A stretch of 64,000 bases of DNA, taken from Sialis fuliginosa (taxonomy: Eukaryota; Arthropoda; Insecta; Megaloptera; Sialidae). Every line of letters begins with the position of its first letter. The first letter of the stretch is position 1. The stretch lies in assembly GCA_961205875.1 (NCBI GenBank), contig OY540812.1, positions 8,184,001 to 8,248,000 of the forward strand, given 5' to 3'. A model generated the notes under the pieces. That model saw only the letters and a program-made list of their open reading frames with translations. It was not told the origin of the DNA and made no database searches. The position numbers were made by a program, and so were the translations under genes. Shown here one piece after another: positions 9,018 to 62,459 of the stretch.

Positions 9018-9418
9018 GGGTTCCATAGATGTATGTGTATTTTTCCCATTTGATTAACATGGGAAAAATTACATTTTATTTACGCGTGAATAGCCCGTTG
9101 TTTTTTGAAAATTTCTGAGAGCAATATTTTTATTATATTTTATATATATTTAAATCCTGTAATTTTTAAGATATATTTGTTGAAATTTAATAATATGCTG
9201 CTGTGAGAAATTAAAATAAATAATTTTCCAGCGAGCTATTCACGCGTATAAGTAAAAAAGTAAGTTTTCCCATGTTAATAAAATGGGAAAAATACTCGGT
9301 TTGCGCCGTTCACAGGTTTGACCTACGAATCTGAAATTTTTGGATAGTTATCTTTTGATCCAAAGCTAAAACATAGGCCAATGGGACTGAAAAAATAAAA
9401 AATAAATAAAAAACACCC
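9018..9418. mobile_element. Long-inverted-repeat MITE family B, copy 1 (left arm shortened)
   Basis: The right end carries the full family arm: a block with TTTCCCATGTTAATAAAATG, a GTTTGCGCCGTTCACAGG block, GATCCAAAGCTAAAACATAG and the end CACCC followed by TA. The left end keeps GGG after TA and the TTTCCCATTTGATTAACATG block, but about 130 bp of the arm is missing. Full copies are at 13687-14307 and 17106-17621. TA at both borders fits a Tc1/mariner-type origin. Confidence 0.65.
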
Positions 9419-9599
9419 TAATATATATACATAGATAGATGTAGAAAAATCTTATGTCTTCGGTCGTAGTCACCAATATTTTGACAAACGGCGATACTCA
9501 ATTTCCATTGTTGTACAAGAAATCAATTTACGAAATGTCACTCTGTCGTATATCGTACATTACCAAATCGTTTAACTCTCTGGTGCAGGATAAAATTGT

Positions 9600-10950: not shown

Positions 10951-11240
10951 TGTCTATTTATTATTGCAGACAATATTGCTGTTTATATACAGCATTGAAA
11001 TTTAATGCAGTGTGATATGTTTTAGTTGATTTTATGTAGTGGGTAAGGATCAGGGTATTTATTAATTTTATACGTGTGATATATTATGTTGCTAAATTGG
11101 TTCTTTTTTAATGAATACTTTGATTATATTGCACCGTTACAAGTTGTATCGTTTATGTAGTTGAAATATTGTACAAAATTATAACGTGACATTTAATTTT
11201 GGAAATATTGTTACTAAATGAAATTTGGTGTAGGTTAATA

Positions 11241-11780
11241 TGGTAAAGGCACCAGTTATGGTCGCCATAAGAGCAAGTTTTCGTTTTTTTTGATTAATGG
11301 GCTTATTTTTGGTAATTTTCATGTACTGATGTTTCTAATAAAACAAGTAACTCTTTATTTAATCAATTTAATTACCAAATATAGTATGTTTTTTAAATTA
11401 TAGTCTATATTTTGTTCATGTATTTTCTCCAGTAATGGCAAAGGTAAAACCAGTAATGAGCACGCACTGATGGACACTTGCTAATGATTACAAAATGATA
11501 AGTACTACGACACACAAGATATAAAAGAAAGAATCATCAAATTTGAAGCTATGTAAAGAAGTTGCTATGATAATATAATGATTAATAAATAAATTATACT
11601 AATAATTAGTTTAAATGTCCATCATTTTGACACCTATTGGCCGATTGTCATCAAATCGCGTTGTAAGACAGTTAAATGTATATATTGAATTAATATTCAG
11701 AAATGGTAGTAATCAAATATCAACATATATTTCTAATTCAGTACATTTAATTTAGAATTTGGTCCTTGTCAAGACTATCT
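11241..11780. mobile_element. TA-flanked MITE family A, copy 2 (540 bp)
   Basis: This copy shares a long interior with copy 3 (blocks such as AGCAAG, ATGAGCACGCA, AAGTACTACGACAC and ACCTATTGGCCGATTGT). The left end is TGGTAAAGGCACCAGT after TA. The right end has lost about 9 bases of the inverted repeat but still finishes ATCT before TA. It is more eroded at its ends than the other two. Confidence 0.75.
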
Positions 11781-13686
11781 TATATGATTGTACCTTTTTC
11801 AATGTTTACATGTTGAAAAATACGTCTTTAAAAGAAATAGTTTTTATAAATGAGTTTATACGTTATAAAATTTAAAATCTGTTTTTATCGATCTGTCGAA
11901 ACTGCACTTATATAATAAATAAAAGAAAACAATAATTTAACAATTGATGAAAAGATTATTATCATCACAATAATTATACATATTTTTACAATATCATGAT
12001 AATTGGTCATGTTAAGAAAATACATTTATACAATTATCAAACAAAGATCGAGGAAATGAATGTAAGCATGATTTTTCAAAATCTATTCATTGTTTTTTTG
12101 GTTCTAAGATTATTTGTGGTTCAAGTACAGCAACAAATCATTTATTGTTTTGAAGCGAACAAGACATTCAGATAATAGTAAAAAAACATATTTCACAATA
12201 TACACTTTGAAATCTTACTTATTGCTTCGGGCAACTAAATATTTTGTACTTATTTTTGAAACGTAATAAAACCTTCTATAAATCCGGGTATTTTTATTCA
12301 GGGTTCTAAATTATCTGATATATACCCTGTTTTTATTATTCGTTTCGCCAAACTAATACCTCTTTTGACTATACAACTATAGCTAGTGCAACTAAAAATT
12401 TTGGGATTTTACGTAGTTACCAAAAATATAATTTTTATTAAATTTTATATAATAATAATTTCGTTATACCACTTTTATTGGACTCGGTCTTGATCTTCGC
12501 TATATATATGAGACGAGATGAAACTAGCATTAATCTCGTCTCCTCTCGTATGCAGCTCTAAATATAACCTTGGTCTAAAATGCAAGTATTGAAATGAGTG
12601 AAAATGATTTGCATAAAAAGAAATTAAGCATTGATTTAATAAACACATCATAAAAAATACAGCACCGAGAAAAATCTACAGCTAATTCAAACAAATTATG
12701 GTATCCATTATATGTGATTATACAAGCCCCTATTGTGAGATGCCAATATTAAACGAATTCTTAGTGATCAGTAGACCATATGTAGGTTTATGTACATGAA
12801 AGTCATTTATACGTATCAATGTAACAGGGGTGATCATCCCCTCAAAATAACAAAACACCCTTATTTATTGTATCAGTAACACATAAACTACTCTCTATCA
12901 ATGTCAACCCAAAATGGATGCGATGTAACGGTTGTTATGTCTAAACGCAATAAATATACCGCTCAAAGTGCACTCGATTGAACAAGGTTTTTAATTCAGT
13001 TGACTAATAGCGATGTGAGATTTTCTGCTTGAATATTATGGGCTTAATAAAATCTGTTTGTTCAGGTTTAAAAATTAATTTGATTATAACGTTGTTACTT
13101 ATTATATGTAAAAGGGTCACTTTTAATTTTAATTATTTGTTTTTGAGATTTTATTCTGCAGTATCATTAAATATTTAATTAATGAAAGAACCATTTATTG
13201 AAATAAAATAAATATAAATATATTGATTTGAATAGCCAGTAGATAATAAAAAGATAATATAAGTACCGCGTTTTCTTTAGAAAATTAATGAAGCATTAAG
13301 ATTATTTAGTTTTTTTTAATGTAATAAATAAAATTATTGTATACTTTTATCAGAACTAGTGTCGCCTATGGTCGAAATTTGATCAATATTTTACCTGCAT
13401 GATTATGAAATCGTAACTGTAGTTCAAAATGAATTTTAAAAATTACCAAATAATTTGGCATCCTCTACGTTTGAACGATGCGAGGGGAAATAAACAAACA
13501 GCGAGAGAGGAAATCATGTGTGTATATTAACGTTATTTTACCTGTTTTAACGGCAACAAATGATTTTTTTTGCACATCTATGACACAGTACCTTTTGAAT
13601 GATATACATATATTTTATTCACCTCCTTTTATTATAAATACTAAAAAAACGAACGACAATTTTCGATGTTCACGTGTTAATATTTA

Positions 13687-14307
13687 GGGTGTTTTTATTT
13701 TATTTTTTCGGTCCCGCAGGCCTATGTTTTAGCTTTGGATCAAAAGTTAATTGTCCCAAAATTTCAGACTCATAGATCAAACCTGTGGATGGCGCAAACC
13801 GAGTCTTTTTCTCATTTGATTAACATGGAAAAATTACTTTTTTACTTATGCGTGAATATCTCGTTAAAAAATTTATTTATTTTAATTTCTTACAGCAGCA
13901 TATCATAGAGAATTATATTTCTTACAAAAAAGATCGCAAGTGCTCAATTCATAGATCGAATATTTTTAAAGACATATTCGTTTAAACATTATAAAAAGTA
14001 AAATCCAATTTTTATGATAATTTTTGAACAAATATTTCTTAAAATTTATTGGATTTATGATTTGAGCACTTAATTCTCTACAAAATATTCCCCTAAGAAA
14101 TTTTCAAACGAGATATTCACGGGTAAGTAAAAAAGTAATTTTTCCCATGATAATCAAATGGAAAAAAGACTCGGTTTGCGCAGTCCAGAGGGTTGATCTA
14201 TGAGTCTGGAATTTTGGGACAGTTAACTTTTGATCCAAAGCTAAAACATATGTAGGCCTGCGTGACCGAAAAAAAAACAAAAATAAAACAAAACAAAAAA
14301 AAACACC
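13687..14307. mobile_element. Long-inverted-repeat MITE family B, copy 2 (621 bp)
   Basis: It starts TA-GGGTGTTTTTATTTTA and ends AAAAACACC-TA. Arms of roughly 170-180 bp hold, in order, CGGTCCCGCAGGCCTATG, TTTTAGCTTTGGATCAAAAG, CCCAAAATTTCAGACTCATA, a GCGCAAACCGAGTC block and ATTTGATTAACATGG. The interior has its own smaller inverted repeat around TGAGCACTTAATTC / AAGTGCTCAATTC. It is non-coding. Confidence 0.8.
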
Positions 14308-17105
14308 TATATAGATGCTATAATTAATGCTATTGACTCTTTTATCATTTCATGTCATCTTTGCAAAGTGCTAAGTTATTATTCAATACAACTAATAAAA
14401 TATCAAGTGTATACAAACACTGATAAATGATTAAAATCCACACAATCCGCTACTCGCTGTATAGAATGTTACATGCGTTATAGATTGAAGATTACCCGCT
14501 GTCTGAGAGAACGACGCCGAGCTATCTCAAGACGGCATATCCGTTTTAAACGTTTCACGGTTCTAAATATAAAATGTGGTTATTTTAATACGTTAAATTA
14601 GCATAACAGTTGACAGTCAAACTAGTTAAAATAACATACATTTTATGTGGCACGCTGACTGTTTTATACGCGTTTGTTGTGAAAATTACTCTTTCGTGTT
14701 TTAAATGTTTAACGTTTAAAAAACCATTCCACAAATATATTATCGATGTGGTGATGAAAGGCGCACTCTCAAAATTAAGAGATAACTTCATTAAACAAAA
14801 ATGTTCCCCCCAGGTTTGTAATCGTACCTAATGTAACATCTATTTCTCATATTTTTTTGGTCTTGTTACCGTTTAATATGTAAGGTGGAATGTGATTTTT
14901 ATTTTTTAAGAAAACAAAAAAAAAGCTTTTACATTATGGTAATCTAGCCTTGTTGCAATTTTTTTGTGTAGATAATTATTTTTCAACAATCATTTTGCTA
15001 TTTGCAGAATTTTCTGCGGATGTTCCTGCTCTGATATTTAAATAAATCATTTTTTATAGGTTTATTGATTATTTATTACTTATTACAAAGTAATGCTAGA
15101 TAAATAAATATCATATTTTATATTATATACCCCTACCTCAAGAGCAGGAGTAGCTAACTTTTGTAATGTGATCTAATATCTTCTGAATTGTATTGCTTAT
15201 TATTAAAAATTACTCATAAAAAATGTTGTTTATTATCGATCACGATCAACCTGTCAGGCCTGCTATAGAGTTTAGTATAAATATTAACTCCATATTACTT
15301 ATATTAAAGTACTTATATAACGAAATATGTAGATAGATAATATATAAAAAAATAAAACAATAAGACATATTTTATAGGGATATTAAATACTTAATTTATT
15401 TTTAACTACTACTTAAATAGTAAATTTACATGCATGCTTAAGTAGTTATATGTTGGTAAAATAATGTGCATGTAGTAATATAATTTTTATCGGAATCAAT
15501 AAAATGACAAGTTTTATGGAAAATAGTGATATCCAATATAAATATATTATTCGACATGAAAATGATGTAAAATTTAATAATTAAAAACACATTTTATGAG
15601 TAATTATTGTTTATAACATGAACTCAATCATTGAAAATTATATACTTACGTATTATAGAGATCCATTTAAAACTTATGGTAAGATAAAAAATGTATTTGT
15701 ACCTAATTATCTTTTAAAATATCATACAGAAAAGACTCCCTATATTTTATTACCGAAAATACTTAAAAAGATCTGACATTATGTAACACTTTTGTTTTTA
15801 TTGTAAATTGTCTGTATTAAAAAAATGTATTTATCAATTCACTGAGCCATTAAACGAATTACTGACTCGGTAAAAACTTTAGATCTTAACGCTTCATAAA
15901 TTCTCTTGAGAAGTAACGTAGATAGATATATAGTATTGTACAATAATAGATATCAACTTTTAAGATATTATCTTTGTTATTCTCTATATATCCGCTACTA
16001 GATAAGTTTCTGCTACTTTTTTACACACAATACTATTTAGAGTTGATTAAATAATTTTTTATATAAAGTAATAGAGAACTTTAACAGTGCTATGTTTTAT
16101 TTTAATTTTTATAAACCATTCATTATTATTTAGAGCCATTATTTATTTTGAAATATTAAATGTTAAATATTAAATATTAGTTTTTATAAGAAAACATATT
16201 TGTATATTAATAAAAATTGGCTACGTTCCTGATATTAATTTAATCTAATGTAATTTTCTATGCAACATCTATTGCATTATATTTTGAGAAAGTTGAAGAA
16301 GCCCTTTATAACTATATGTTATAATCAAACCGATCTAGAAATTTAGTATCGTATAAATGGGTTTTATGTACTAATTATTATTACTTATGATGTTATTTAT
16401 GTACAACAACTGTAGCATAATTATAATGTATATTTTTTAATGATGTTATCGTGTTTGTCATTGTATTAATAATATATTTTATATCAAACGATTAGTAGTA
16501 CTTATATAATGTCAACTTGAATAAAAATATGTATTTTCTTAGCAAGTTTATTCAATCTTTTCCTTCCTTAATTATCTTATTATAATTTAATTTTAATCGA
16601 CTTTTAGATTGATTCAAACAAAACACTAAATAACTAAATTATTATTTAGGTACCTATCTTTACTGTACCTAATAAAAATAACAAAAATTAATGTATATTT
16701 TGCTATTCTACTTTTTTGTTTGTTATAGGTATCAATCATATGATTTAAAAAAAAAATCAATTGAAATTCGATTAAAGATAGAAAAGGTTTGCATACAAAA
16801 TAAGAAACATATCATTACCTATACATACATAATAATGAACAATTAGTTAAATTGTATTAATATTAATTCATGCCATCTTAACTCATAATCATGTATAAAA
16901 ATTATTGCTCAAGCATTTCTGAATGACCTTAACAGAATTAATTATAAAAATATTCTAATCTACTAGTATAGGACATGAACGCCAATATATTTATTTAAAG
17001 GGTGACTGCGTGTATTACATATTGAACTTATGGGTAGTTTTTGTTTTAATATATTATTAAATATGAGTATATATCTATAAATATGAAAAATAGGTATATA
17101 TATTA

Positions 17106-17621
17106 GGGTGTTTTTTAAATTTATTTTATTTTTATTTTTTCGGTCCCGCAGGCCTATGTTTTAGCTTTGGATCAAAAGTTAACTGTCCCAAAATTTCAGA
17201 CTCATAGATCAAACCTGTAGACGGCGCAAACCGAATCTTTTTCCCATTTGATTAACATGGGAAAAATTACTTTTTTACTTATGCATGAATATCTCGTTGA
17301 AAAAAAGTGCTCAATTCATAAAATCAATAAATTTTAAGAAATGTTTGTTTAAAAATTATCATAAAAATTGTTTTTTATGATAATGTTTAAACGAACATAT
17401 CTTTAAAAATATTCGATCTATGAATTGAGCACTTTAGATCTTTTTTTGTTTTTTTTACCCATAACTAAAAAAGTAATTTTTCCCATGTTAATCAAATGGG
17501 AAAAAGACTCCTCGGTTTGCGCCGTCCACAGGTTTGATCTATGAGTCTGAAATTTTGGGACAATTAACTTTTGATCCAATGCTAAAACATAGGCCTGCGA
17601 GACCGAAATAAAAAAACACCC
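17106..17621. mobile_element. Long-inverted-repeat MITE family B, copy 3 (516 bp)
   Basis: It has the same termini (TA-GGGTG ... CACCC-TA) and the same arm blocks as the 13.7-kb copy, with similar left and right arms. The centre is a second short palindrome (AAGTGCTCAATTCATA against TATGAATTGAGCACTT). It makes a strong foldback and encodes nothing recognisable. Confidence 0.82.
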
Positions 17622-17929
17622 TAATATACATGCATTTAACATGTAATATATCATATTTTTTATGTTATTGTTTTATATTTAATTAGTAAATGTTTATATC
17701 TGAAGTAAGGTAGAGTGGGAGGAAAGATTTCCTCATTTCCCCTATCTATAGGCACCCATGGTGAAGACATAAATAGGTACAGATTTAACGACATAGTTCC
17801 TAGACGTGTTACTTGATGTTATTTCTATATACATCGTTCAAATATACCATATCACTACAATGATGTAGGTAAAAAGCGAAGCATTATAAATATGCACGAG
17901 ATCAGATAATTGTTGGATACATTTATTGT

Positions 17930-19420: not shown

Positions 19421-20191
19421 AGCATTATTCATTTGAAGAATTTGAATAAATAATAACTAATTACTTTACTATTTAATCTGTTCTGATTTTTCTATACAAT
19501 ATTTTCAGTAAAAAATCATACAACTATTAATTTATTAATAATAATTTATTCTGATTTTATTTACAAACAACTTAATATTATAATACCGCTTACAGCTTTT
19601 TTTATAAATACTATCGAAATATATAATTAAAAAGCAATACATAAACATTTAATTACAGTAGCAATATTTTAAAGTCTCTATATATTACATATACATCATT
19701 CTCTACGTTTACTCGATGAACATAGATAAGGTAAACCAACGTTGATAAACTGTCTACAAAACATGTCAATAATTTATTGCTTTTTATTTTGAGATGTGAA
19801 AGCATACATAATACACAATTTACTACAAAGTTTTATTTAAATTACTTTCTAGATAATTAAATAGGTATCTATTTATTTGTTTAACCAGTCTCAAGCGAAA
19901 TATGTTTATGTATTATTCGCTAATAAATTATACGTTAAAGTATTTTTATTTATTCGTTGAAAGTGTTTATTTATACATTAAGTACATTTTAATTGAATTT
20001 TAATGTAGGTTTTGTTCAACCTATTAGTTATAGGTATACAATATGAAATAATTATAGCAGTGTTGATTTATAGAAATCATTTATTAGTCTGTAATTTAAT
20101 GTGACTCTAAAGAAATCTTTATAAATTTAAAAGTTGATATTTAAAAACCTGCATATTTTATGAATCTAATAAGTATTGATATTTGTTTCAG

Positions 20192-20576
20192 ATGGTCAAA
20201 ACAGTCACTTGAACCTCTTCAACACCCGACAACAGCCGAAAAAGAAACGAAAATCACGCACCGCATTTACAAACCACCAGATATTCGAATTGGAAAAACG
20301 GTTTCTTTATCAGAAATACCTAAGTCCCGCAGATCGCGACGAAATCGCAGCCTCTCTTGGTCTGAGCAACGCACAAGTGATCACGTGGTTCCAAAACCGA
20401 AGAGCGAAACTCAAGAGGGACATGGAGGAGTTGAAGAAAGATGTAGAAAGTGCGAAAATACTTACAGCTCATAAAAGCTTCTTAGAGAATGTCCAAGATC
20501 TTGGTATTTTAAAGAAAAAGTCTATGGTTAATATACCAGATGACTGTCCGAAGAACTTAGTCATATCTCATGAGAA
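20192..20576 (+). CDS. lb: Ladybird (Lbx-family) homeobox transcription factor, homeodomain exon
   Basis: This exon encodes the DNA-binding domain of a ladybird/Lbx transcription factor, a nuclear protein that in insects specifies muscle, heart and neural cell identities. The acceptor TTTGTTTCAG ends at 20191 and the exon opens in phase 1, so the preceding exon supplies the first base of an Asp codon. Counting from the next residue (Gly), the homeodomain spans residues 18-77 (20245-20424). It starts [20 protein letters not shown], and helix 3 is [17 protein letters not shown] with Trp48, Phe49, Asn51 and Arg53 intact and the Lbx-type Thr47. The linker before it ([18 protein letters not shown]) aligns with the vertebrate LBX1 pre-homeodomain region. 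After the domain come a charged helix ([11 protein letters not shown]) and [15 protein letters not shown]. Upstream coding exon(s) are not in the window. If the intron at 20577 is retained, translation ends one codon later, after HEK. Whether this corresponds to fly lbe or lbl cannot be told. Confidence 0.93.
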
Positions 20577-20789
20577 GTAACTTTAAATCTTTAATATTAG
20601 ATTATAATCGATTATTTTTTGTTACCGTACTGAAATGTAATTGAAACAATTACAATTAAATTTTAATTTTAATTATTTAAAAAAAAAATTCAATCGAAAT
20701 CTAATTTAAATATACTGTAAATATAAATATTGTTTTATTATGTACCCTTCTATTTTATTTACTTACACAGTTTTTTTCTTATCATCTAG
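20577..20789 (+). other. lb: Putative 213-bp last intron of ladybird with a stop codon overlapping its donor
   Basis: The donor reads GAGAA|GTAACT. The in-frame codon AAG followed by TAA straddles it, so an unspliced transcript stops at 20578-20580. The acceptor TTTTTTTCTTATCATCTAG ends at 20789 with a good pyrimidine tract. The phases match: two bases (AA) remain before the intron and one base (A) follows, making a Lys codon. The donor has A rather than G at -1, so it may be weak. Confidence 0.6.
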
Positions 20790-22184: not shown

Positions 22185-23680
22185 ATAGACCAGATTATTG
22201 TTGGCAATACGTAAACTAAATTAACATAAAATTAATTTCTTGTTCTTGTATTGGTATCGAAAGTATATTAAACAAATCTGCCAGATAGGTATATAATAAA
22301 ACAAATCGTTCTGGCTAATTGATAAAAGATATAAAAAAATAATGGAACATAAATTATAGAAAATAAAGTTGTCAACAATTTTTCTTTTAGGTATTTCCTT
22401 AAGAAGTTTTTTTTAGAGATTTTCTCTCCAGATCTTATATAAAAAAAATTTCACGTTTCTATGTGTTGTATTTTTTAATTTCCATAAAAACCTTTTGATT
22501 GTAAAACGTATATTTTTAAAATATCAAATAAAGAAAATAGTAAATAAATACACATGCATCAATTTTCCTGTTTTCTTAATATTTTCTGATCTTCAGTAAC
22601 TAAAAATGTACCGAATAAGCTTCCGCTGTGGCCCGAGGCTTGAAAAACAAACAAGAATTTATTTCCCATCTGGTCAACCTAAACGTATCTGATTTATGAA
22701 TTGACATAATAAACTCCGCTGTCAGAACATGAAAATCAAAGTGAATCTTTTTTAATCTTGACCTATATTTATCTGCAATATGTCAAAGTTGTCATAGATT
22801 AAATTTACAACTAGTGTCAAAGATTTTGTAATGTTTATAAAACATTTATGTGATAATAAAAGTGCTACTAGTTTCCTTTAATACCGCCATCATTCATTTA
22901 TATGTAAAATCAACAAATAATACATTTTTCATTCATCTTTTTCACGTACTAGTATATTTATATACATTTGTTTAAAAATATTACAGTATAAGTTAGTATG
23001 AATCTCCACTCCTCAAAGTTCCTATATCTATATACACAGGCCCTAAGAGAGCTTTAATGGGGTCCGAGCCAAACAACATTTCGGGGGCCCTATACCCCCT
23101 CCACCGTTTCGCGAGCGTAAAGAAATTTTATAAAAAAGTTATAAAAAGTTTATATATAATTTTTTTAATTCAAATTATTTAAAAAAGCTTTTCGCGCTTT
23201 AGAATTCTCAAATTCTTTAATTATTTATGAAAAATCAACTTTTCATGCATAGTCACAATTAATATTCAAGATTGACAAACCATTTAATCTGTCCTGAGAC
23301 ATTGTCGATCTGTTAAAAACATTACTCTTTTCAGGGTAATAAAGCTTCTTTCAGTAGAACTAATAGAAGCGAGTAAACTCAAATATATTCTATGAAAATT
23401 GAAAATTGTAAGATAATATAAATTATAAATATTTTTATAAAATATAAATAACTTTATGGGTGCCGGGGCCCCTGAGGCTTCATTGTAAAGAGGAATTGAT
23501 TTGGAATCTGATTCCGTAAAAATACAGCGTGTTGTGTTTAAGAAAACAAAGTGAAGTATTTTTTGTTTGACAAGTTTTTAATTCAACTTCAATATTTTAG
23601 CAGATATAAGCTGGACAATGAAAAGTCAGACACCCTGTATATACATTTTCTTAAAATACAAAGTAACTTAAAAACAAAAA

Positions 23681-23721
23681 CACCGTGTTGCTGTTTTGTC
23701 TTTCTGGTCTAAACACGGCAT
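23681..23721 (+). repeat. 41-bp hairpin repeat, copy 1
   Basis: Begins CACCGTGTTGCTGTTTTGTC and ends GGTCTAAACACGGCAT. The CCGTGTT and AACACGG ends can pair. An almost identical copy (39 of 41 bases) in the same orientation is at 63090-63130 in the bagpipe first intron. Both are preceded by an A-rich run (AAAAAC or similar). It is perhaps the terminal hairpin of a larger element such as a Helitron or SINE. Confidence 0.6.
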
Positions 23722-24729
23722 AAAACATACACATATCAATCAAATAACAATAAAATGTCTTCTTTAAGTACCGTATCGTTTTTCAGTATGAATTTTAAAT
23801 TCATTGGTTCTCACTCACCAAATCTAATTAACTACGAAATAACGGCTGAAATATGCGCTTGCAACATATTATATACGAAGTAAAAAAATAATAATAATAC
23901 GGTTAGCTAATGAGTTATGATTATTATTACTTTTTGCTTTAATTTCTAGATGTTGAATTTGACATGAAAAATTGTATTGTTCGAATCATAAAAACCAGTG
24001 GCGGACTTTATATAATAAATAATAATTGGAACATATAACATTTATACCTACTTCACAATTGAAACTTAATAGCAAATCAAGTATTGAATTAAGGTTTAAT
24101 AATTACAGGACATATATAATTTCTGCCGATAAATTTAAATAGGTGATTTTGAATATTTTTACGTAATAAAACTCAACAAATTGCCCAAATTGCTTTCCAC
24201 GTCAGGTTTTTAAGATAATATAAACTACCCTCCCTCAAATGACGATTCTGGCAAATTTTAAAAATTTAGTACCATGAAAGTAATTTTTTATAAAATTTTC
24301 GTTCATGATAACAAATAGTACTATTATTCCTTTTTAAATTAAATTTTATGTTTGAAGATTATGGTATTTAAAAAATAGAGTAGGGTAAACACAACGAACT
24401 AGAGTCTAGAGTTATACATACAAATATAACAATATCTTTAAATTAGTATATTTCAGCGTAGAAGAATCGTATAGTAAAATGTAAAAATCCATTTTAAAGA
24501 GTAAAGATAGTACTATTCATTACTGTGAACGAAAACTTAACATTAAATTACCCAGATGATAATAAATTCATATATTGTCGAAACGCAGTTTTGGGGATTT
24601 TTAGGTTAGGTTCTAAAAAACATGATGTGATGAAGCAATTTTGGCAACTGATTCGATTTCATTATGCCAAAAACCTTTTGAATCAACTATTCTGATCACT
24701 AAGCCAGAACAAAAGTATTTTTTGTTGAC

Positions 24730-24984
24730 CAGTGTTGATCAGATCTGTATTTTGAGACAAAATCTTATTTTGTAACTGGTTTTTGATCTATGAAGACCTG
24801 CAAAGATCTACAACGATCTACAAAAATCTCTCGTTTGAATCTCTATCATGATCTGCAACGATCTTCAGATATCTTTGAAAATCGTTGTAAATCTTTGCAG
24901 GTCTCCACAGATCAAAAACCAGTGACAAAATTTGATTTTGTCTCAAAATGCAGTTCTATCATGATCTGATTTGATCACTGCAGA
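24730..24984. repeat. Inverted-repeat element with GATCT-rich arms
   Basis: The left arm holds TTTTGAGACAAAATC, AACTGGTTTTTGATCT, GAAGACCTGCAAAGATC and ACAACGATCT; the right arm has the same blocks in reverse complement and reverse order. The arms are roughly 110-120 bp. ATTACCC near 24547 and GGGTAATAAATT at 25001 may be the real ends, making a 450-bp element. Non-coding. Confidence 0.65.
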
Positions 24985-25384
24985 TGTAATTTTTTTCCCG
25001 GGTAATAAATTGGGTTGTGTACTGGTATAATTGTTGGGTTCTTTCACAATTGCAAACTTGTAATGTTGTCCGCCACTGTAATACGAGTCACACACATAAC
25101 ATATGAGTAAGTTACATGTACTGAGACGTCATTTCCTGTGCATCTTTGTAATTAAGACATTAATCAAAACACTGATTATCATAAATCATAATTATATAAT
25201 TATTGTTTTCAACTTTTTTAATTCTAGTTTTGGTGAACGAATTATGGCCATATATTAAATTATGTTAATGCGAACAAAATAATTTTAAACTTAGGCAGTT
25301 TACACTAAAATTATACGTAGATTCTGTAGTAAAATCAAGCAATATTATTATGGAGTGATGAGTAAATATTTATATATATTTTCT

Positions 25385-25470
25385 GGTGAAAAATTCCGGG
25401 TAGCTCCGCGTTCTGCGTTGTTATTCTTGACGACGTTTCAATCGAATCCTATCGGCCATCTTCAGGTCTG
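25385..25470 (-). repeat. Element fragment with degenerate hammerhead-like words
   Basis: On the minus strand the order is CTGAAGATGGCCGATAGG, then GATTGAAACGTCGTC. The CUGANGA and GAAA core words and a terminal GUC are present, but the segment between them does not form the required stem well. It lies 75-100 bp left of the clear ribozyme-like pair and is probably part of the same kind of element. Confidence 0.4.
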
Positions 25471-25564
25471 GTCTGAACTTAGTTCTTTGAACTTCTACTG
25501 GGGAAAAGGAGAAACTGTGTTTCTAAGTCACTTAGAAGTATACACCTTAACCACAATAAAATAA

Positions 25565-25613
25565 TGTCACTCGACACGTGTTTCGACTTCACAAGAAGTC
25601 CTCATCAGGAGCC
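25565..25613 (-). ncRNA. Hammerhead-ribozyme-like motif, minus strand
   Basis: Read on the minus strand: core CTGATGA (25608-25602); stem II GACTTC-TTGT-GAAGTC; core GAAA (25584-25581); then a self-complementary short stem III ACACGTGT followed by C (25573), which would be the cleavage base of a GUC site. The flanks GCTC and GAGT can start stem I. All invariant core bases are in order. Caveats: one extra G separates the core from a perfect stem II, and stem III leaves no loop, as in short-stem-III hammerheads thought to work as dimers. Confidence 0.55.
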
Positions 25614-25643
25614 TATAAGGTTTGACCAAGACTGGAACTGTTA

Positions 25644-25692
25644 GGCTTCTGACGAGGACTTCTTGTGAAGTCGAAACACGTGTCGAGTGACA
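25644..25692 (+). ncRNA. Hammerhead-ribozyme-like motif, plus strand
   Basis: Core CTGACGA (25649-25655; the variable base is C), stem II GACTTC-TTGT-GAAGTC, GAAA (25673-25676), short stem III ACACGTGT and the cleavage-site C at 25684. The pattern is the same as in the minus-strand copy. Stem I pairing is weaker here (GCTT against GAGT, with wobbles). It has the same extra G before stem II as its partner, so this is a feature of the family and not random damage. Confidence 0.52.
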
Positions 25693-27759
25693 TTGTTTTA
25701 TTGTGGTTAAGGTGTATATTTTTAGTTTAAGTGTCTTTGAACTTCGTTTGACTAGTGACTGCTGTTCTGTGCGTTCTCTCTCGTTTATATACCAATCTGA
25801 TTGGTCGGTATAGTATCAGGTGTTGTGTTTATGCAGTCTGTGGTACGTTGCATAACTCTCGTTTGTGAATTACTATCATAGATCGAACACATTCGGATTT
25901 TGTCGTGTCTTCCGAAAGGGTAATTCTCTGCGCTACGGAATATGTCGAACGTGTCTGATTTAAACATAAACCGTCACTGGACTCACATAAATATAGCTCG
26001 CGCACCGCCACTGTTATATATATGATATATTATATATAGTGATAGGTATTGAAATTTTAAAATTAATTTTTGAAGTAAATTTAATACTCGTAGTTTCCTA
26101 ACTAACCTAAGTTTTAGCTCAAGAAGTGAGGTGCCTATATAACTATAATAATTATAAAACATTTCATTTTGATTTATTTCGACGTGAAAATTTATTTAAA
26201 AGATGATTACGATAAAAATAATAATTTTCCATAGCCATAATTTTGAAATAGGTAAATAAAATAATAGAAACATTATTAATAACGACTTACATACATAGAT
26301 AATAAAAAATTCAATTATTGAATATTCGGTGAAGTGTGCCATTCAAAAGTCTTCACTTATTGTTCTTTAATTGCATGAAATCATAGAGAAACGAAAATAA
26401 AAAGGTCAGATCGTGATTTTAGTTATTATAGAATTTATAAACACATTTTAATGGCTCTTCTTCACTATAAACGTTATGTATCACATGCAAACGGATGTTC
26501 GTTATAATATTTTATATAGTGTGATTTATCGTGTATTAATTTCATACGTATCGTTAAAATTGTAATTTATAACTACAGTCGTTAATTTCCCGCAATATAT
26601 ACATACTATATTAAAATAATTCTTAAATAAATATACGTACGATATTTATCATAGTACTACAAAAATACTCCATAAACCACCGATTCCTTCTCTTTTATAT
26701 ATGAGATCAGTATTTGATAGAACCAAAGATCATATCCATAAGTTATCGTTTTTTTTTATGTATCCATGGTAGATTTGAAGTTTCACTGCATGTATGTATA
26801 GTTGTATTGGTAAGTCCTCGTTTGTACTTGGTTATTTAAGTTGATAAAATACAATATCGGTTTTCATAAATTATGAAACATTATTTTATAAAATAACAAA
26901 ACCCAAAATAGAATATTAATAGTTCTAAGATTTAGCTACTTTGTAGAATTAGGTATTACTGGTTCAATTTTTTTAAGTTGTCGCTTTCTAAATAGTTATT
27001 TTTAAAAGAAAAAAATCCCCGTTGGGTAGACCATATCAAAATTATCGAGATAACTTCTTTTTCTTTTTTTTACGTATACATTTTTTTCTCTCTCAAATAA
27101 AATCGTTATTATAAGGATCAGTAGAGTTAAAAAAAAGTTTATATTTTTCAATATTTTCAGTATGTCAACCTGAAAAATACTATTTTGTAATTTTTATTCG
27201 ATTTACTATATGAAATTCAATTTGTCATTTTTTAAATACATATAAACTGTTACCATAATGTAGTTTTTTTGTAAATATGATAAATATTGAAATAAGGTTT
27301 AAGAAAAATAATTTTTTATCATACAGTTGGAAAAACCTGTAAATATATATGTATGAACGAAACATTACTTTTTTACTTCAATAAAACTATAATTTTTTTT
27401 TATACAATCTAGTGTATGCGTATAACGTATATTAAAAGTAATAATACACTGTCAAAACATGTTGAATTTGTAAATAAAATATAAGCTACCTAATGAGTAA
27501 CATTTTATATTTTATGACTAATGCTATTTCCCGTCCACAGGCGCTGGGAAAAATAAAGCCTCCTTAATCATAATCATAAAATACGGACATACAATTTTTA
27601 ATTCAAAATCTACCACATATACTTACACAGATAGGTACAAACCGATGTGACAATTAGTCAAATTTAACGTCCAAAGATTGTAATCAAAACCGTGACATTT
27701 AAATTAGATATAATACGATCGCCATAGGAATTCCGGATATTCAAATCAGAGTTATATCA

Positions 27760-27965
27760 GAATCGCTTTTGGTGGTCTCACACGGAATATCTGTTAGCGC
27801 TTATGGCGGCGTGGATCATAATTAGGACCCAACACCTTTTTAACGACCTTCAGATCTAACGAGACAGACCCAACGCTTCTGTGCGCGAAACATATAACGG
27901 CTATAGTCGCTAAAGACGGACTTGCACTGTGTTAACCGAGTCCTAGCCATTTCTTGTAGAAACAT
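27760..27965. promoter_or_regulatory. Candidate regulatory island
   Basis: Balanced composition in an AT-rich setting, without inverted ends or reading frame; includes TTATGGCGGCGTGGATCATAA and GTGTTAACCGAGTCC. Listed because this is the kind of sequence that stands out in conserved-noncoding comparisons of homeobox clusters. Confidence 0.25.
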
Positions 27966-28231
27966 TACATTCCTTTGAAGATATTTAATTTGTATCACAA
28001 GGAGAGATCTTTTAAAATGTATTTATGAGATTTTGAATTTTTAAATAATATTTTAGATACTTACATATTTTTCTTGATTCACTGACCAAGTAAAATTTTT
28101 GTTTGTTTATTTTAATATCAAAAATTTTAGTATCAAAAATAATGCTTTACTTTCATATTATATACTTTCAACTCGAGATATTTTCTTACATTTCAGTTGC
28201 CTATCTCTGTAATATTTTATTTACTACTGTA

Positions 28232-28452
28232 TAATCCATACTTCTGTACTAAGACTGATATTATAAATGCGAAAATAACTCTGTCTGTTTATTACTTTTT
28301 CACGGCTAAATAGCTAAACCGATCTTGATGAAATTTAGCAGGGAGATAGCTTGTATCCTGAGGAAGGACATAGGATACTTTGTATTCTGCAATATTGATT
28401 TAAAAAATAAATACAAATTTCACGAGGACAAAGTCATGGGCAACAGCTAATA
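28232..28452 (-). mobile_element. Lepidopteran-type retroposon tail, minus orientation
   Basis: On the minus strand it reads GCTATCTCCCTGCTAAATTTCATCAAGATCGG in outline (only partly quoted here), then a GTTTAGCTATTTAGCC block, ACAGACAGAGTTATTTTCGC and a degenerate ATAATATCAGTCT end. This is a very common insect, especially moth, interspersed sequence and matches the copy at 53421-53707. It is a truncated, inactive fragment. I believe it is the 3' end of a non-LTR element or SINE; the exact family is not certain. Confidence 0.65.
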
Positions 28453-28639
28453 ATTATATAAATAAGTGTATTATTCAGTAGCAATATCATTCCAAGTGAA
28501 AAAACAATTGCTTACTATAATTTTGAATAAACTTATTTTTAGATGCCATTTAATTCATATAGAAAAGCTATATCAAAAATTATAGTAAAATATTAATTTA
28601 ATTAATTAATTATAACTACGTAAACATGCATCACAAATC

Positions 28640-28880
28640 GCTTATAATTAATTACGACTCGTTCAAGTCACTCGGCCGAGCTGTTCAGGTTTGAAAACCG
28701 GCCCTTAATGGGGTGTTCTCTTAACGTTCTAAACTACTACTTGTAACACGAATCAAAATCGCTTGTAATTTCGATGCCGCCAAATTACCCCAGGCTCTGC
28801 TCGACGAGATGAATAAAGCGGCGTTGTGGAGGAATAGCCAGCGTATATTTGGATGCATGTAATAGAAGGAATGCGGTTCT
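28640..28880. promoter_or_regulatory. Candidate regulatory island
   Basis: CpG-containing, balanced sequence (TCACTCGGCCGAGCTGTTC, GACGAGATGAATAAAGCGGC) with TAATTAATTAC at its left end. No reading frame, no inverted ends. Enhancer role only inferred from contrast with its flanks. Confidence 0.25.
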
Positions 28881-29123
28881 CAACATTTTCATTTTTATGT
28901 CGTTTTTGTGAAATATGAATTTAGTTATTATTGAATCATTGAAATTAAAATAATTAGATTATTCAAAATCTCTCAGCATGTATTTTATATTTTATTGTTT
29001 TGTTTAAATTTTCAATACGCTAATATAAATTATTAAATCAGTTTAAACACTTCTACAATAAAAGTAAATATTAGCATTTAATATTAATTTACATGCTCAA
29101 TTATAAAATTACAATATAATACC

Positions 29124-29870
29124 TCTACGTCTTATTTTCTTGTATTTTAGTCGATATTTGTATGACGAGTTGAAGTCCACTGCAGGAAATTTCACTAAAA
29201 AATTTCGAATTTTTGATTTCGTTAAAAATATATTTATTATATAAAAAATGGTGCGAAAAGTTGAAATTTTCAAACCGCAGGTCAGTATCTCAAACCGTTC
29301 TCGAGATATAGCCTCTCAAAGTTTTAGTTTTTTCAAAATTTTGGAGAAAAATGGCCCTAACTTTTGAACGTGTGGTCGGAATTGATTTTAGTTGACGGAT
29401 TTGGAATCAGCGTGTCAAAATCTATGACATGTATAATACCTAAAACTAAAAAAAAAAAAATTTCACGAAAAATCAAAAAAATTCAAAGGGGTATATCTTA
29501 AAAAAATGTCGATTTTTGGCCAAAATTTTTTTGTCGGATTTTAAAGTATTATACATGTCATTATATAGATTTTGACACGCTGATTTCAAATCCGTCAACT
29601 AAAATCAATTCCGACCACGCGTTCAAAAGTTATGGCCTTTTTTCTCCAAAAATTTGAAAAAACTAAAACTTTGAGAGGCTATATCTCGAGAACGGTTTGA
29701 GATACAGACCTGCGGTTTGAAAATTTCAACTTTTCGCGTCATTTTCTATACAACAAACATACTTTTAACGAAATAAAAAATTCTAAATTTTTTTATGAAA
29801 TTTCCTGCAGTGAACTTCATTCAACTCGACATACAAATATCGACTAAAATACAAGAAAATAAAACGTAGA
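29124..29870. repeat. Very long palindrome / foldback element, about 745 bp
   Basis: The ends are TCTACGTCTTATTTTCTTGT and the complement ACAAGAAAATAAAACGTAGA. The two arms of about 340 bp match along nearly their entire length, including ATTTTAGTCGATATTTGTA, AACCGTTCTCGAGATATAG and AATTGATTTTAGTTGACGGA. Only a short centre around GTCGATTTTTGGCC is unpaired. No coding capacity. A diverged fragment of one arm occurs at 40330-40430. The superfamily is unknown; no clear target duplication was seen. Confidence 0.85.
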
Positions 29871-39540: not shown

Positions 39541-40329
39541 TGCGGCTTTGTTCACAATATAGAAATTTTGATTTAGAGTATAGAACGTTTACTATATTTT
39601 GATGTAATCCTACATAACTAGTAAACAGATGAGTTGCGTAACTAGCCAAACGTGACAATAAGAAGACATTCCACGCAATGATCTAAATCAGTAGTTTTTT
39701 GTTTTTCTAAACCCTCTCCTGCTTTTATAAACTAACTGCAATTCTGCCTAATGATTTTTGGTCTATCAATATACATTTTTTTGGTTCATTGACCAATTTC
39801 AGCTATATCTGCGCATATGATATTGAAATATTTTGTCTGTGCGGGGAAATACTATTATGTTATAATTAAATATTGAAATAAATGGATTTTTATCTGTTTT
39901 AATTTATCATTTTAAAAAGACCCCTGAAAATTTCCACTGAAATGGCTGATGAATCATTAGTCAAATAGAGTTTAATAGAGAACCAGAACAAACATGGCTT
40001 AGGTGTCGAATATATAGAGATAGGTACCATTTTGCTTTCTTATATAGCTCTTTTACTTACTTATAAGTATGTACAAAAGCAACTAGGGCTGAATACGAGC
40101 TTCAACAGCGGCCCGAGCAAAAAGTAATGGATGGCACATATTATAAAGTTTAGACTTAATTAATTACTATGCCCATAGGCGCCGACTCAAAAAGAGAGTG
40201 ACCGGGGCGATCACTCACCTTGGTGTGATACCAGTTATGATTTTCCTTTATTATCTTCTTATCTTTAAGTTGATATTTCTATGAAAATTTCATGTTTGAT
40301 GCATGAAATATTATCTAAAAATTTTGTAT

Positions 40330-40430
40330 TTTCGATTTTGTTAAAATGAAGTGAAAAGTTGAAATTTCAAACTGCAGATATGTATCTCAATTCGTTCTCG
40401 AGATATGGCTTCTCAAAGTTTTAAGATCAC
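40330..40430. repeat. Diverged single arm of the 745-bp palindrome family
   Basis: GTGAAAAGTTGAAATTTCAA, CTGCAGATATGTATCTCA and CGTTCTCGAGATATGGCTTC match the left arm at about 29255-29320 with scattered differences. It shows that the large palindrome belongs to a repeat family and is not a unique sequence. Confidence 0.6.
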
Positions 40431-50165: not shown

Positions 50166-50310
50166 CGACTTTTGTCGTTTGTCACATAAAAAAGTTAACT
50201 AAATAATATTTGGTGATTTATAGCTATCTACAATATTTAATTAATTTTTTACTAATCTAGGTACTTTAAGTTTTTCAATTAAAAAATTATATCTTGTATA
50301 AAATAAGCTA

Positions 50311-50865
50311 AGGTACTGGCACCAGTTATGACCGCTATAAGAGCAAGGTTTACTGTTTTTGTGATTGACGGACTTAAATTATTTTTTTGTAATTCTCATG
50401 AACTCATGTTACTAATAAATCAAGTAACTCTTTATTTAATCAATTTAATTACCAATGTCCGCAAATATTGTTTTTTTTTTAAATTATAGCCTTTTATTTG
50501 GTTTTTGTTTTTTCTTCAGTAATGGATAAAGTAAAACCAGTAATGAGCACGCAGTGATGGACATTTGCTAATGATTACAAAATTATAAGTACTACGACAC
50601 AAAAGATAAAAAAGAAAGAATCGTCAAATTTGAAACAATGTAAAGCAGTTGCTATGATAATATAATAATTAATAAATAAATTATACTAATAATTAGAAAT
50701 GTTCACAATTTTGACACCTTTTGGCCGATTGTTATCAAATCACGCTGTAAGACAGTTAAATGTGTATAGATTAATATTCAAATATCAACAAATATTTCTA
50801 ATTCAGTACATTTAATTTAAAAATTGCCATTACTAGGGTCACATCCAAGACTGGTGCAGGTATCT
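50311..50865. mobile_element. TA-flanked MITE family A, copy 3 (555 bp)
   Basis: It starts AGGTACTGGCACCAGTTATG and ends ACTGGTGCAGGTATCT, with TA directly outside each end. It is the longest and best-ended copy and shares its whole interior with the 11.2-kb copy. The 10.2-kb copy is shorter by about 140 bp. Confidence 0.82.
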
Positions 50866-59301: not shown

Positions 59302-59805
59302 TTACTGATCAGAAATATTAGAAGCTTGTGTTTCCATTGCATTATCATCTTCTTTAATAATGGATTGAGGACTTGCTAAATTATGGCCAAGCATAGCAGG
59401 ATGATAACAATTAAAATATGATAAAGGCAAAGGTACGCCTAACGTCCCGCTATTGTACTGCTGTTGATAAATATTCAATACTGACTGTTGGAAAGATTTG
59501 TTAGGAACTTTGGAATCGTATAAAAAGTTTTTATTTTGAAACTGACTTAAAAGATTTGCTTCGTTTTTAATAATCTGTTCATAAACTGATTTCTGTGAGA
59601 GATAATCATTCTTTTGATCATTGTAGTAACTAGGCTTTGGGTGAATGGCGTTATATTTCTGATGAAGAGCAAAGAGCGGTATGTCATCTTTGACTAACAC
59701 TTTCACAGCAACTTTCCGTGCATTTTGGTTGATCAAACTACTTTCTTGCATTTGCATTTGTTTTCTTTTAGTTTTGTATCGTCGATTTTGATACCAAATT
59801 TTAAC
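59302..59805 (-). CDS. bap: Bagpipe (NK3-family) homeobox protein, last exon
   Basis: The acceptor CTTCTTGTTACAG precedes GTT at 59805 and the stop TAA is at 59304-59302, giving 167 residues. The first 16 residues, VKIWYQNRRYKTKRKQ, are homeodomain positions 45-60 and complete the domain begun in the upstream exon; an intron between positions 44 and 45 is common in NK-type genes. Tyr54 is the NK hallmark and Asn51/Arg53 are intact. Position 49 is Tyr where NK3 proteins normally have Phe. Then RKVAVKVLVKDD matches the conserved NK3 motif after the homeodomain (as in vertebrate Nkx3-2). The remainder is Asn/Gln/Tyr-rich and low in complexity, ending in SNISDQ. It is a nuclear transcription factor that, in flies, drives visceral mesoderm (midgut muscle) fate downstream of Tinman. 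Confidence 0.93.
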   Translation of the reverse strand, partial: VKIWYQNRRYKTKRKQMQMQESSLINQNARKVAVKVLVKDDIPLFALHQKYNAIHPKPSYYNDQKNDYLSQKSVYEQIIKNEANLLSQFQNKNFLYDSKVPNKSFQQSVLNIYQQQYNSGTLGVPLPLSYFNCYHPAMLGHNLASPQSIIKEDDNAMETQASNISDQ

Positions 59806-60302
59806 CTGTAACAAGAAGAAAAGTATTTGTAATAGTACATACATGTGATATTACTTTTTAATGGGTTTATCCACTTTCATATATACACTTAGTTACAGCT
59901 ATATGGATTATTCACGTACCGTATCTAATTGCTAAATGAAATACAGGAAAATAGGTATAAGTACTACTGTAATTTATCTCAAGTAAGTATTATTTGAAAC
60001 TATCAGAAAATTCTACCGATTCGCATATGTAAATAATTTTAATTATGTACCTCAATTTATGCATGTGTATTAATGGTAAGTACTCGTTTTTGTCGGCAAG
60101 ATATATGCATTGCAAATTTCCATTTAAAAAGCTCTTAAAATGTTTAATTTTACTTTAAAATAGTTTGCAGGAATGAGGATTTTTTTGCAACTTAAGACCT
60201 TTCTTTGGTTAATCAGGCCGTAAAATGGAAGAAGAAATTTAATACATTTAAAAATGCCATCAATGAGTTTTTTCGAAGTCATTCTTAAGAATTTTTAACT
60301 TA

Positions 60303-61596: not shown

Positions 61597-61652
61597 TACA
61601 TACATACCTATTAGCCATGCTTTATATACTATACAATAAATTAAAAATTCAC

Positions 61653-61948
61653 CTGCGTTTCTGTAAGTTTCAAACTATGTGCCAAATCGGCTCTTTCCGG
61701 GCCGCTGAGGTACCTCTGCTGATTAAACCTTCTCTCGAGCTCGTACACTTGTGCATGGGTGAACGCGGCCCGCGATCTCTTCTTGCGCGCCGTCGTGCCG
61801 GACGCCGACGTGTCTGTACTATTGTTAGTGTCCTGGCTGTGAGAGCGCTGGAACGCCTCCGGGAGATGCGATGTGCTCTGGAGGAACGCCGGACTCGGCG
61901 ACGGGGAAGAGTATACTGTCGTTGGGGATATCGAGCCGTCGTCTGTTT
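61653..61948 (-). CDS. bap: Bagpipe (NK3-family) homeobox protein, middle exon
   Basis: The acceptor TTTATTTGCAG precedes AAACAGAC at 61948. The exon is 296 bp and opens with two bases that complete a Glu codon with the G left by the upstream exon. It encodes a Ser/Thr/Pro-rich linker ([19 protein letters not shown] and on) of 54 residues. Homeodomain positions 1-44 follow: [20 protein letters not shown] then [20 protein letters not shown] and TETQ. The arm [18 protein letters not shown] and [12 protein letters not shown] are diagnostic of bagpipe/Nkx3. Codon use is strongly GC-biased compared with the surrounding DNA. Frames on the opposite strand are shadows. Confidence 0.95.
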
Positions 61949-62459
61949 CTGCAAATAAAAAAATATTTATTGATCTCTAGAATGGAAGCTCTTGGACAAG
62001 GCTGAGAATATCGAATACCGATTTTAAATTGAAGTTCCACTGTATTTTAATAAAAAATAAATATGAACAAGTCTACAAATTCGACAAACCGACCTTTTCT
62101 ATAAACTTTTCTGAAAAGTTAATTGGTTCTTTGAAATATCGGTTCCACAGTTCCAAATATTAATTTGTTTGTCTTCCTTATAAATCATAATTATTATAGT
62201 TTCTGCAGGTCTGCATGGGCCTTATATTTCAATATTTACCTTGTTAAATAACATTATACCTAAAAGACATTCAAGGCTGACTGATAATTTCAGTATTTAA
62301 TATACTTAATGGTGTTATTTAAATAAAGAGGAAATGGTATGATTAAAATACCAATTACTTAAAATTTCATTCAATCTGTATCTATATGTACTATATGTAT
62401 GTATATATAACAGTACTTGATTTTAATATAACAATTTGTTATATCTATTATCAGCTAAA

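What the first reader, a model, noticed from the sequence alone, without database searches (positions are those of the whole stretch)
25539..25718. Pair of divergent hammerhead-ribozyme-like motifs in a 75-bp inverted repeat
Both arms carry the ordered invariant blocks of a hammerhead: CUGANGA, a stem closed by a TTGT loop (GACTTC/GAAGTC), GAAA, a minimal self-complementary stem III (ACACGTGT) and a C in the GUC cleavage position. Short-stem-III hammerheads are known from Penelope-like retroelements and retrozymes, where they act in pairs. Here two copies sit back to back 30 bp apart, so either strand of transcript could contain one motif plus its complement. Both copies have the same extra G before stem II, which suggests an inherited family feature.
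Basis: partly seen in the sequence, partly recalled or inferred. Interest (0 to 1): 0.75.

Follow-up and report, generated by a model that had tools for sequence, protein, structure and literature searches.

The report
Inverted Penelope retroelement ends with hammerheads
Beside a homeobox gene in what looks like an animal genome lies a small decayed scrap of jumping DNA, probably two back-to-back ends of a Penelope-type retroelement, each carrying the short hammerhead self-cleaving RNA motif known from such elements; it is an ordinary relic whose layout resembles insertion products already described.

Summary
Arms 25533-25615 and 25642-25724 form a 94% inverted repeat. Each carries every invariant hammerhead word in order, and Rfam Hammerhead_1 matches both arms over its full length at 18.9 and 16.9 bits, below the curated cut-off of 34. 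A third, decayed hammerhead-like motif lies on the minus strand at 25465-25429; a loose word pattern finds 3 places where about 0.015 are expected.

Best reading: a 238-bp insertion (25496-25733) of two 5'-truncated pseudo-LTRs of a Penelope-like element (PLE), head to head. It is flanked by a 12-bp direct repeat (candidate target-site duplication), with a 33-nt "tail" on the left copy only. Published PLEs show inverted pLTRs, short target-site duplications, an optional 30-40-bp tail and an ORF start at stem II. No PLE protein was found in the 10 local frames scanned, no second copy was found, and no host genome is held, so the assignment is inferred (about 0.7).

The motifs lie on opposite strands. 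A transcript across both is predicted to fold into a long hairpin, so this is not the tandem pair described for PLEs. Cleavage here is doubtful. New member of a known kind, of modest interest.

The parts
25496..25733 (.). Proposed insertion: two 5'-truncated Penelope-like pseudo-LTRs, head to head (238 bp)
   Evidence: Inverted repeat, hammerhead motif in each arm, candidate 12-bp target-site duplication outside. PLE identity is inferred from layout.
25484..25495 (+). Left copy of candidate target-site duplication TCTTTGAACTTC
   Evidence: Exact 12-bp direct repeat with 25734-25745. A common substring of 12 or more in 60+60 flanking bases occurs at 59 of 20000 random places in the window.
25734..25745 (+). 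Right copy of candidate target-site duplication TCTTTGAACTTC, flush with the proposed end of the right pLTR
25496..25528 (-). 33-nt extension of the left copy only, proposed optional PLE 'tail'
   Evidence: Lies between the shared end (AAGTG) and the direct repeat. Length compares with the 31-bp tail of Pen2a_Av (PMC3846280) and the 30-40-bp tail in PMC11167929. The fold of 25496-25540 is not unusual (z -0.43).
25529..25615 (-). Left pLTR arm, sense strand minus
   Evidence: 94% complementary to the right arm over 25533-25615, weaker gapped match out to 25529.
25642..25733 (+). Right pLTR arm, sense strand plus, without tail
25567..25614 (-). Hammerhead motif, left arm; predicted cut 3' of C25573
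   Evidence: Rfam Hammerhead_1 (RF00163) 18.9 bits, model 1-45 complete, cut-off 34; rule search.
25643..25690 (+). Hammerhead motif, right arm; predicted cut 3' of C25684
   Evidence: Rfam Hammerhead_1 16.9 bits, model 1-45 complete, cut-off 34; rule search.
25603..25605 (-). ATG at the start of stem II, possible remnant of a PLE ORF start (12 codons, then stop; ACG in the right arm)
   Evidence: Translation. Position compares with the Anolis PLE PAc, whose ORF begins at stem II.
25616..25641 (.). Spacer between the arms where the two 5'-truncated copies meet
   Evidence: Outside the paired arms.
25429..25465 (-). Third, decayed hammerhead-like motif of different sequence, just outside the insertion; probably an older PLE-like relic
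   Evidence: Word pattern hit. No Rfam hammerhead hit up to E 10 in 25340-25560. No significant alignment to the arms (p 0.067 and 0.649).

Best explanation
The locus is a small insertion of a Penelope-like retroelement: two 5'-truncated pseudo-LTRs joined head to head with no coding region between them. Inferred course: a PLE protein cut both strands of the target and reverse-transcribed its own RNA from both ends. Synthesis started at two internal start sites, one giving the copy with the 33-nt tail and one the copy without it. Both cDNAs stopped shortly upstream of the hammerhead and were joined, leaving a 12-bp target-site duplication. Each arm keeps the minimal type I hammerhead that PLE pLTRs carry near the start of their ORF. 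At this locus the motifs are probably passive remnants: a transcript across both is predicted to fold into a long hairpin rather than two ribozymes. Shown: the inverted repeat, the motifs, the direct repeat and the one-sided extension. Inferred: PLE origin, priming from both target strands, lack of present function. The confidence of 0.7 is for a PLE inverted-pLTR insertion; the both-strand priming step alone is about 0.45.
For: (1) Rfam Hammerhead_1 matches both arms over the whole model at 18.9 and 16.9 bits. Divided by the 4227 families, the E-values are about 2e-5 and 8e-5 for that one family in 451 bases (my arithmetic). (2) Core words with stems: 2 places in the window, 0 in 100 random windows (rules partly post hoc). 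(3) Short palindromic stem III (ACACGUGU); PLE hammerheads are minimal type I motifs with little or no helix III (PMC6155905, PMC7761336, passages). (4) For rotifer Penelopes, head-to-head inverted pLTRs, TSDs of 8-10 bp in some copies, and a 31-bp tail optionally present on one of the inverted pLTRs are described (PMC3846280, passages). Here: head-to-head arms, 12-bp direct repeat, 33-nt extension on one side only. (5) The Anolis PLE protein cuts and extends both strands, the most common start of reverse transcription lies 111-118 nt into the ORF, and the 30-40-bp tail lies between two start sites (PMC11167929 section 3). Here the ends lie 110 nt (left) and 82 nt (right) from the ATG position, counted. 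(6) ATG at stem II in the left arm, 33 nt to the cut site, against 26 in PAc. (7) A third hammerhead-like motif 143 bp further along the minus strand.
Against: No reverse transcriptase or GIY-YIG match in 10 of the 109 open frames of 30 aa or more in 22500-29000 (the other 99 were not scanned). No second copy in the window, and 0 exact-pattern matches in viral or prokaryote collections, where an animal element is hardly to be expected. The Rfam scores are well below the cut-off of 34, and five microRNA models gave better E-values in the same search. The direct repeat is flush on the right only, and there the arm's end was set by a weak gapped alignment. In free flanks of about 240 bases such a direct match is not rare (p 0.04). 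Ten other self-inverted stretches in this window show that palindromic elements are common here. The frame from the ATG stops after 12 codons. The tail shows no notable fold, so the AC-rich stem-loop of PAc was not matched. Some rotifer copies have no TSD, so a TSD is not required either way.
Confidence: 0.7

Rival explanations
1. A palindromic miniature DNA transposon (MITE), for instance of the Tc1/mariner kind with a TA duplication (TA-TACACC...GGTGTA-TA), in which the hammerhead words are coincidental or were picked up.
For: The outer ends read TATACACC / GGTGTATA, so a TA duplication can be drawn. Ten other self-inverted stretches lie in the window, and the one at 24736-24961 has CAGTG/CACTG near its ends.
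Against: The complete hammerhead geometry occurs in 0 of 100 random windows. All 3 loose pattern hits in the window lie within 25429-25684 and none in the other palindromes. A weak similarity continues past the TATA to AAGTG, and a 12-bp direct repeat lies outside.
Confidence: 0.17
2. A fragment of a metazoan non-LTR retrozyme (non-autonomous retroelement with type I hammerheads) inserted in inverted form.
For: Retrozymes carry type I hammerheads and are reported in many invertebrates, insects included (PMC7229834, passages).
Against: Retrozymes are described as small tandem repeats, about 150-350 bp, mostly with canonical hammerheads. Here there is no tandem copy and the motif is of the minimal kind.
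Confidence: 0.08
3. The same PLE relic, but the palindrome arose by self-priming on an antisense template (as proposed for rotifer Penelopes) or by later inverted duplication, not by priming from both target strands. This is a variant inside the 0.7 of the best explanation, not an addition to it.
For: PMC3846280 favours self-priming for head-to-head junctions. The 26-nt spacer could be the snap-back loop (inference).
Against: The two outer ends differ by a 33-nt tail, which suits two separate starts of reverse transcription better than one copied molecule (inference).
Confidence: 0.25
4. Chance or assembly artefact.
For: The Rfam score is below the cut-off. AT-rich DNA with many palindromes makes hairpins easy.
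Against: Random expectation 0.015 for the loose pattern against 3 found. Arms with 5 substitutions and unlike flanks.
Confidence: 0.05

Closest known systems
Penelope-like elements with inverted pLTRs (Pen2a_Av, Pen2_Av and others of Adineta vaga; PMC3846280, passages seen)
   Same: Head-to-head inverted pLTRs, short target-site duplication in some copies, optional tail of about 30 bp on one inverted pLTR, 5' truncation.
   Different: Pen2a_Av also has an ORF and a second direct pLTR, and its pLTRs are 181-218 bp. Here only two arms of about 90 bp meet with a 26-nt spacer, and no ORF was found. Solo pLTRs, some enclosing unrelated DNA, are also described there.
Minimal type I hammerhead of PLE pLTRs (PMC6155905 and PMC7761336, passages; PAc of Anolis, PMC11167929, section 3 read)
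   Same: Little stem III, short stem I, ORF start at stem II, cut site about 30 nt into the ORF.
   Different: PLE hammerheads are described in tandem and may cleave as dimers, and that of PAc cleaved only when protein was added. Here they are divergent, stem III has an 8-nt palindrome, and one extra G lies before or in stem II.
Rfam RF00163 Hammerhead_1
   Same: Full-length match in both arms, CGAAAC and an 8-nt stem III segment as in the model.
   Different: 18.9 and 16.9 bits, below the gathering score of 34.
Non-LTR retrozymes of animals (PMC7229834, passages seen)
   Same: Type I hammerhead in a non-coding repeat.
   Different: No tandem array, minimal motif.

Membership tests
Hammerhead ribozyme | Invariant core CUGANGA ... 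GAAA ... A-U pair ... H17 with three stems | tested here: met
   Both arms. One extra G, which can be placed as a bulge inside stem II.
Hammerhead ribozyme | Covariance-model score at Rfam's gathering threshold | tested here: not met
   18.9 and 16.9 bits against 34; no gathering-level match in the window.
Hammerhead ribozyme | Self-cleavage of the RNA | not testable with these tools
   In silico the hammerhead fold is not the MFE of either monomer (-8.2 and -6.1 with a 2-bp stem III, -9.1 and -7.3 without, against MFE -11.2 and -12.0).
Penelope-like element | Reverse transcriptase plus GIY-YIG endonuclease ORF | tested here: not met
   No match in 10 of 109 local open frames scanned against Pfam. 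Expected for a pLTR-only fragment, so it lowers the membership claim without excluding descent.
Penelope-like element | Minimal hammerhead in pLTRs near the ORF start | tested here: met
   Motif. ATG at stem II in the left arm and in the third motif. That the arms are pLTRs is itself inferred.
Penelope-like element | Inverted or tandem pLTRs with short TSD and optional tail | tested here: inconclusive
   Inverted arms, 12-bp direct repeat (59 of 20000 random places do as well), 33-nt one-sided extension. No empty site available.
Metazoan retrozyme | Small tandem repeats with type I hammerheads | tested here: not met
   No further copy in the window and no tandem array at the locus.
MITE / DNA transposon | Terminal inverted repeats flush with a target duplication | tested here: inconclusive
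   TA can be drawn at TATACACC/GGTGTATA, but any 2-bp duplication in AT-rich DNA is weak evidence.

The most novel reading that the evidence does not exclude
The palindrome is not a single accident but one copy of a non-autonomous, pLTR-only PLE derivative that propagates as a hairpin: its RNA of either strand carries one hammerhead and its antisense, so it could be mobilised by PLE protein priming on both target strands, a 'Penelope MITE'.
Probability: 0.1. Interest if true: 0.5.

Novelty: new member of a known kind. Interest (0 to 1): 0.28.

Why it matters
If the reading is right, this is a compact natural product of PLE insertion in which both ends are start sites of reverse transcription and nothing else was copied. 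It fits the in vitro result that a PLE protein cuts and extends both target strands and starts internally at sites separated by a tail of 30-40 nt. A survey of such pLTR-only palindromes could help decide between priming from both target strands and self-priming, an open question about PLE replication. As a single decayed locus it settles nothing by itself.

Tried and rejected
Host genome search: none held. Exact-pattern scans for relatives of the arm: 0 in viral contigs and 0 in genome contigs; these are collections of viral and prokaryote contigs, so this says little. Scans for relatives of the third motif: 0 in viral contigs and 1 in genome contigs. That one was a GC-rich (68%) bacterial sequence, rejected as chance.

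Rfam microRNA matches over the palindrome (MIR8562, MIR2646, mir-76, mir-3045, mir-576) were rejected although their E-values are better than the hammerhead's: all are far below their cut-offs, and a long hairpin can score on such models (inference). A tRNA-derived SINE was not supported (0 tRNA genes in the window). An extension of the inverted repeat beyond AAGTG was rejected. Alignment of the third motif with the arms was not significant. A stem-loop in the tail comparable to the AC-rich stem-loop of PAc was not convincing. A reading of the left extension as a splice acceptor (pyrimidine-rich stretch ending in CAG) was considered and left open; nothing here tests it. The bacterial promoter and terminator scan found 0 and 0 and is not informative for an animal genome.

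Papers on PLE hammerheads and PLE structure that I wanted but that are not held: Cervera & De la Pena 2014, Lunse et al. 2017, Craig et al. 2021. I know them only through citations in other papers and recall.

Full report
What was checked. The window is AT-rich (28% GC). It holds homeodomain exons: 20173-20580 plus strand (E 1.4e-22), 61641-61976 minus (E 3e-13, model positions 1-45), and 59302-59850 minus (E 0.00073, below the curated cut-off, model positions 43-57, so probably the second exon of the same gene). From recall of such proteins these look like ladybird/Lbx and bagpipe/Nkx3, so the window is probably from an invertebrate NK cluster; no call tests this. No host genome is held. The finding lies about 5 kb past the first of these exons.

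Observation. Arms 25533-25615 and 25642-25724 are 94% complementary with 26 nt between. They differ at 5 of 83 positions, all transitions. Two of the five fall in the hammerhead region: one at the free position N7 of CUGANGA and one turning a stem I C-G pair into U-G (read). Rfam Hammerhead_1 matches the left arm on the minus strand (25567-25614, 18.9 bits, E 0.074) and the right arm on the plus strand (25643-25690, 16.9 bits, E 0.34), both over model positions 1-45. In the same list five microRNA models have better E-values; all are below their cut-offs and are taken as the effect of a long hairpin. The E-values are for 4227 families in 451 bases. For the hammerhead family alone they are about 2e-5 and 8e-5, and scaled to 64 kb about 0.0025 and 0.011 (my arithmetic). 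No family reaches its cut-off in the whole window, and at whole-window scale with E up to 0.5 no hammerhead is listed. A rule search (core words, stem II of at least 4 bp with at most one extra nucleotide, palindromic stem III, stem I of at least 3 bp) finds 2 places in the window, these two, and 0 in 100 Markov-1 random windows. The rules were made after seeing the motif.

The motif. 5'-...CUC-CUGAUGA-G-GACUUC-UUGU-GAAGUC-GAAA-CACGUGU-C-GAG...-3'. The extra G can be drawn either between A9 and stem II or as a bulge one pair into stem II, with G10.1-C11.1 kept. Stem III is the palindrome ACACGUGU; a single molecule can close about two pairs, while the co-fold of two same-sense molecules pairs all eight. 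The monomer minimum-energy folds are not the hammerhead (-11.2 and -12.0, against -8.2 and -6.1 for the hammerhead with a 2-bp stem III). In the papers seen, PLE motifs are minimal type I hammerheads lacking helix III or the tertiary contacts, found in tandem, and may cleave as dimers; the role is called unknown (PMC7761336, PMC6155905, PMC6466107, passages). The hammerhead of the Anolis element PAc cleaved only with protein added, and ribozyme mutants did not affect insertion in vitro (PMC11167929, section 3).

A third motif. A loose pattern (CTGANGA, 8-30 nt, GAAAC, 0-6 nt, GTC) gives 3 hits: the two arms, and the minus strand at 25465-25429. The mean is 0.015 per random window (3 hits in 200 windows). 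The third motif has stem I GAC/GUC, an extra U after CUGAAGA, a stem II GGCCGA/UCGAUU with 5 of 6 pairs (two of them G-U), and a 2-bp stem III (ACGU), all read by eye; its free minimum-energy fold is not the hammerhead. Rfam does not report it, and it does not align significantly with the arms. It is best taken as an older, different PLE-like relic into or beside which the palindrome inserted (inference).

The insertion. A direct repeat TCTTTGAACTTC lies at 25484-25495 and 25734-25745. A common substring of 12 or more within 60 bases on each side occurs at 59 of 20000 random places; over freer flanks of about 240 bases the direct alignment score has p 0.04. The gapped alignment of the two arms extends, weakly, to AAGTG on both sides. 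That makes the right copy end flush with the repeat at 25733 and leaves 33 nt (25496-25528) on the left only. [quoted passage not shown] head-to-head is called the most frequently observed arrangement; some copies have no TSD (PMC3846280, passages). In the Anolis PLE, the protein cleaves and extends both strands, the most common start of reverse transcription lies in an AC-rich stem-loop 111-118 nt into the ORF, the tail of 30-40 bp is the stretch between two start sites, the ORF begins at stem II, and the cut site is 26 nt further (PMC11167929, section 3). Counted here: ATG at 25605-25603 (minus), cut site 33 nt on, left end at 110 nt with the tail and 77 without, right end at 82 nt. The agreement was found after the fact and in one locus, and no AC-rich stem-loop of note was found in the tail.

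Mechanism. Most likely two cDNAs were started from the two target strands at two internal start sites, stopped early and joined in the middle (inference). Self-priming, favoured in PMC3846280 for rotifer Penelopes, remains possible. At present the locus is probably inert: a transcript across both arms is predicted to fold into a hairpin (-151.7 and -138.5 kcal/mol for the two strands of 25496-25733), and the motifs cannot form a same-sense pair in cis. An outward transcript starting inside one arm would carry a single minimal motif.

Against the reading. No PLE gene was found: 10 of 109 local open frames of 30 aa or more were scanned, with 0 reverse transcriptase or GIY-YIG matches and one weak hAT-transposase match at 23287-23577. 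No relative was found by exact patterns in the collections at hand, which are viral and prokaryotic. The window has 10 other self-inverted stretches, so palindromes are common here, and a MITE with a TA duplication can be drawn. Mainly the hammerhead words and the one-sided extension speak for a PLE.

Novelty. The papers seen through searches show that PLE hammerheads and inverted, head-to-head pLTRs are both in print. These searches did not bring up a paper on pLTR-only hammerhead palindromes as a family, but their lists were judged by titles and abstracts, only passages of 9 papers and one section of a tenth were seen, and key papers are not held. I file this as a new member of a known kind.

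Noticed in passing
20173-20580 (+); 61641-61976 and 59302-59850 (-): Homeodomain exons (Pfam; the last one below the curated cut-off). By recall they resemble ladybird/Lbx and bagpipe/Nkx3, so the window looks like part of an invertebrate NK homeobox cluster.
   Followed up: partly
25429-25465 (-): Third, decayed hammerhead-like motif with an ATG right after CUGAAG and one extra nucleotide before stem II, different in sequence from the arms.
   Followed up: partly
29124-29870: 747-bp palindrome with long arms (pieces 93%, 96% and 78% complementary), related to 40237-40423 at about 70% identity; probably a foldback or MITE-type element.
   Followed up: no
24736-24961: Palindromic element (arms 87%) with CAGTG/CACTG near its ends, perhaps a Tc1/mariner-type MITE; microRNA-family matches below cut-off lie on it.
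   Followed up: no
9037-9441, 13680-14317, 17091-17635: Three related, internally inverted repeats (pieces about 75-95% alike); the second and third share a translated segment reading like AYVLALDQKL.VPKFQTHRS.LW.AQTE; a repeated mobile element family.
   Followed up: no
11239-11761 and 50309-50826: Dispersed direct repeat of about 520 bp, 83% identical.
   Followed up: no
23287-23577 (-): Open frame with a weak match to the hAT transposase dimerisation domain (E 0.0026, below the curated cut-off).
   Followed up: no
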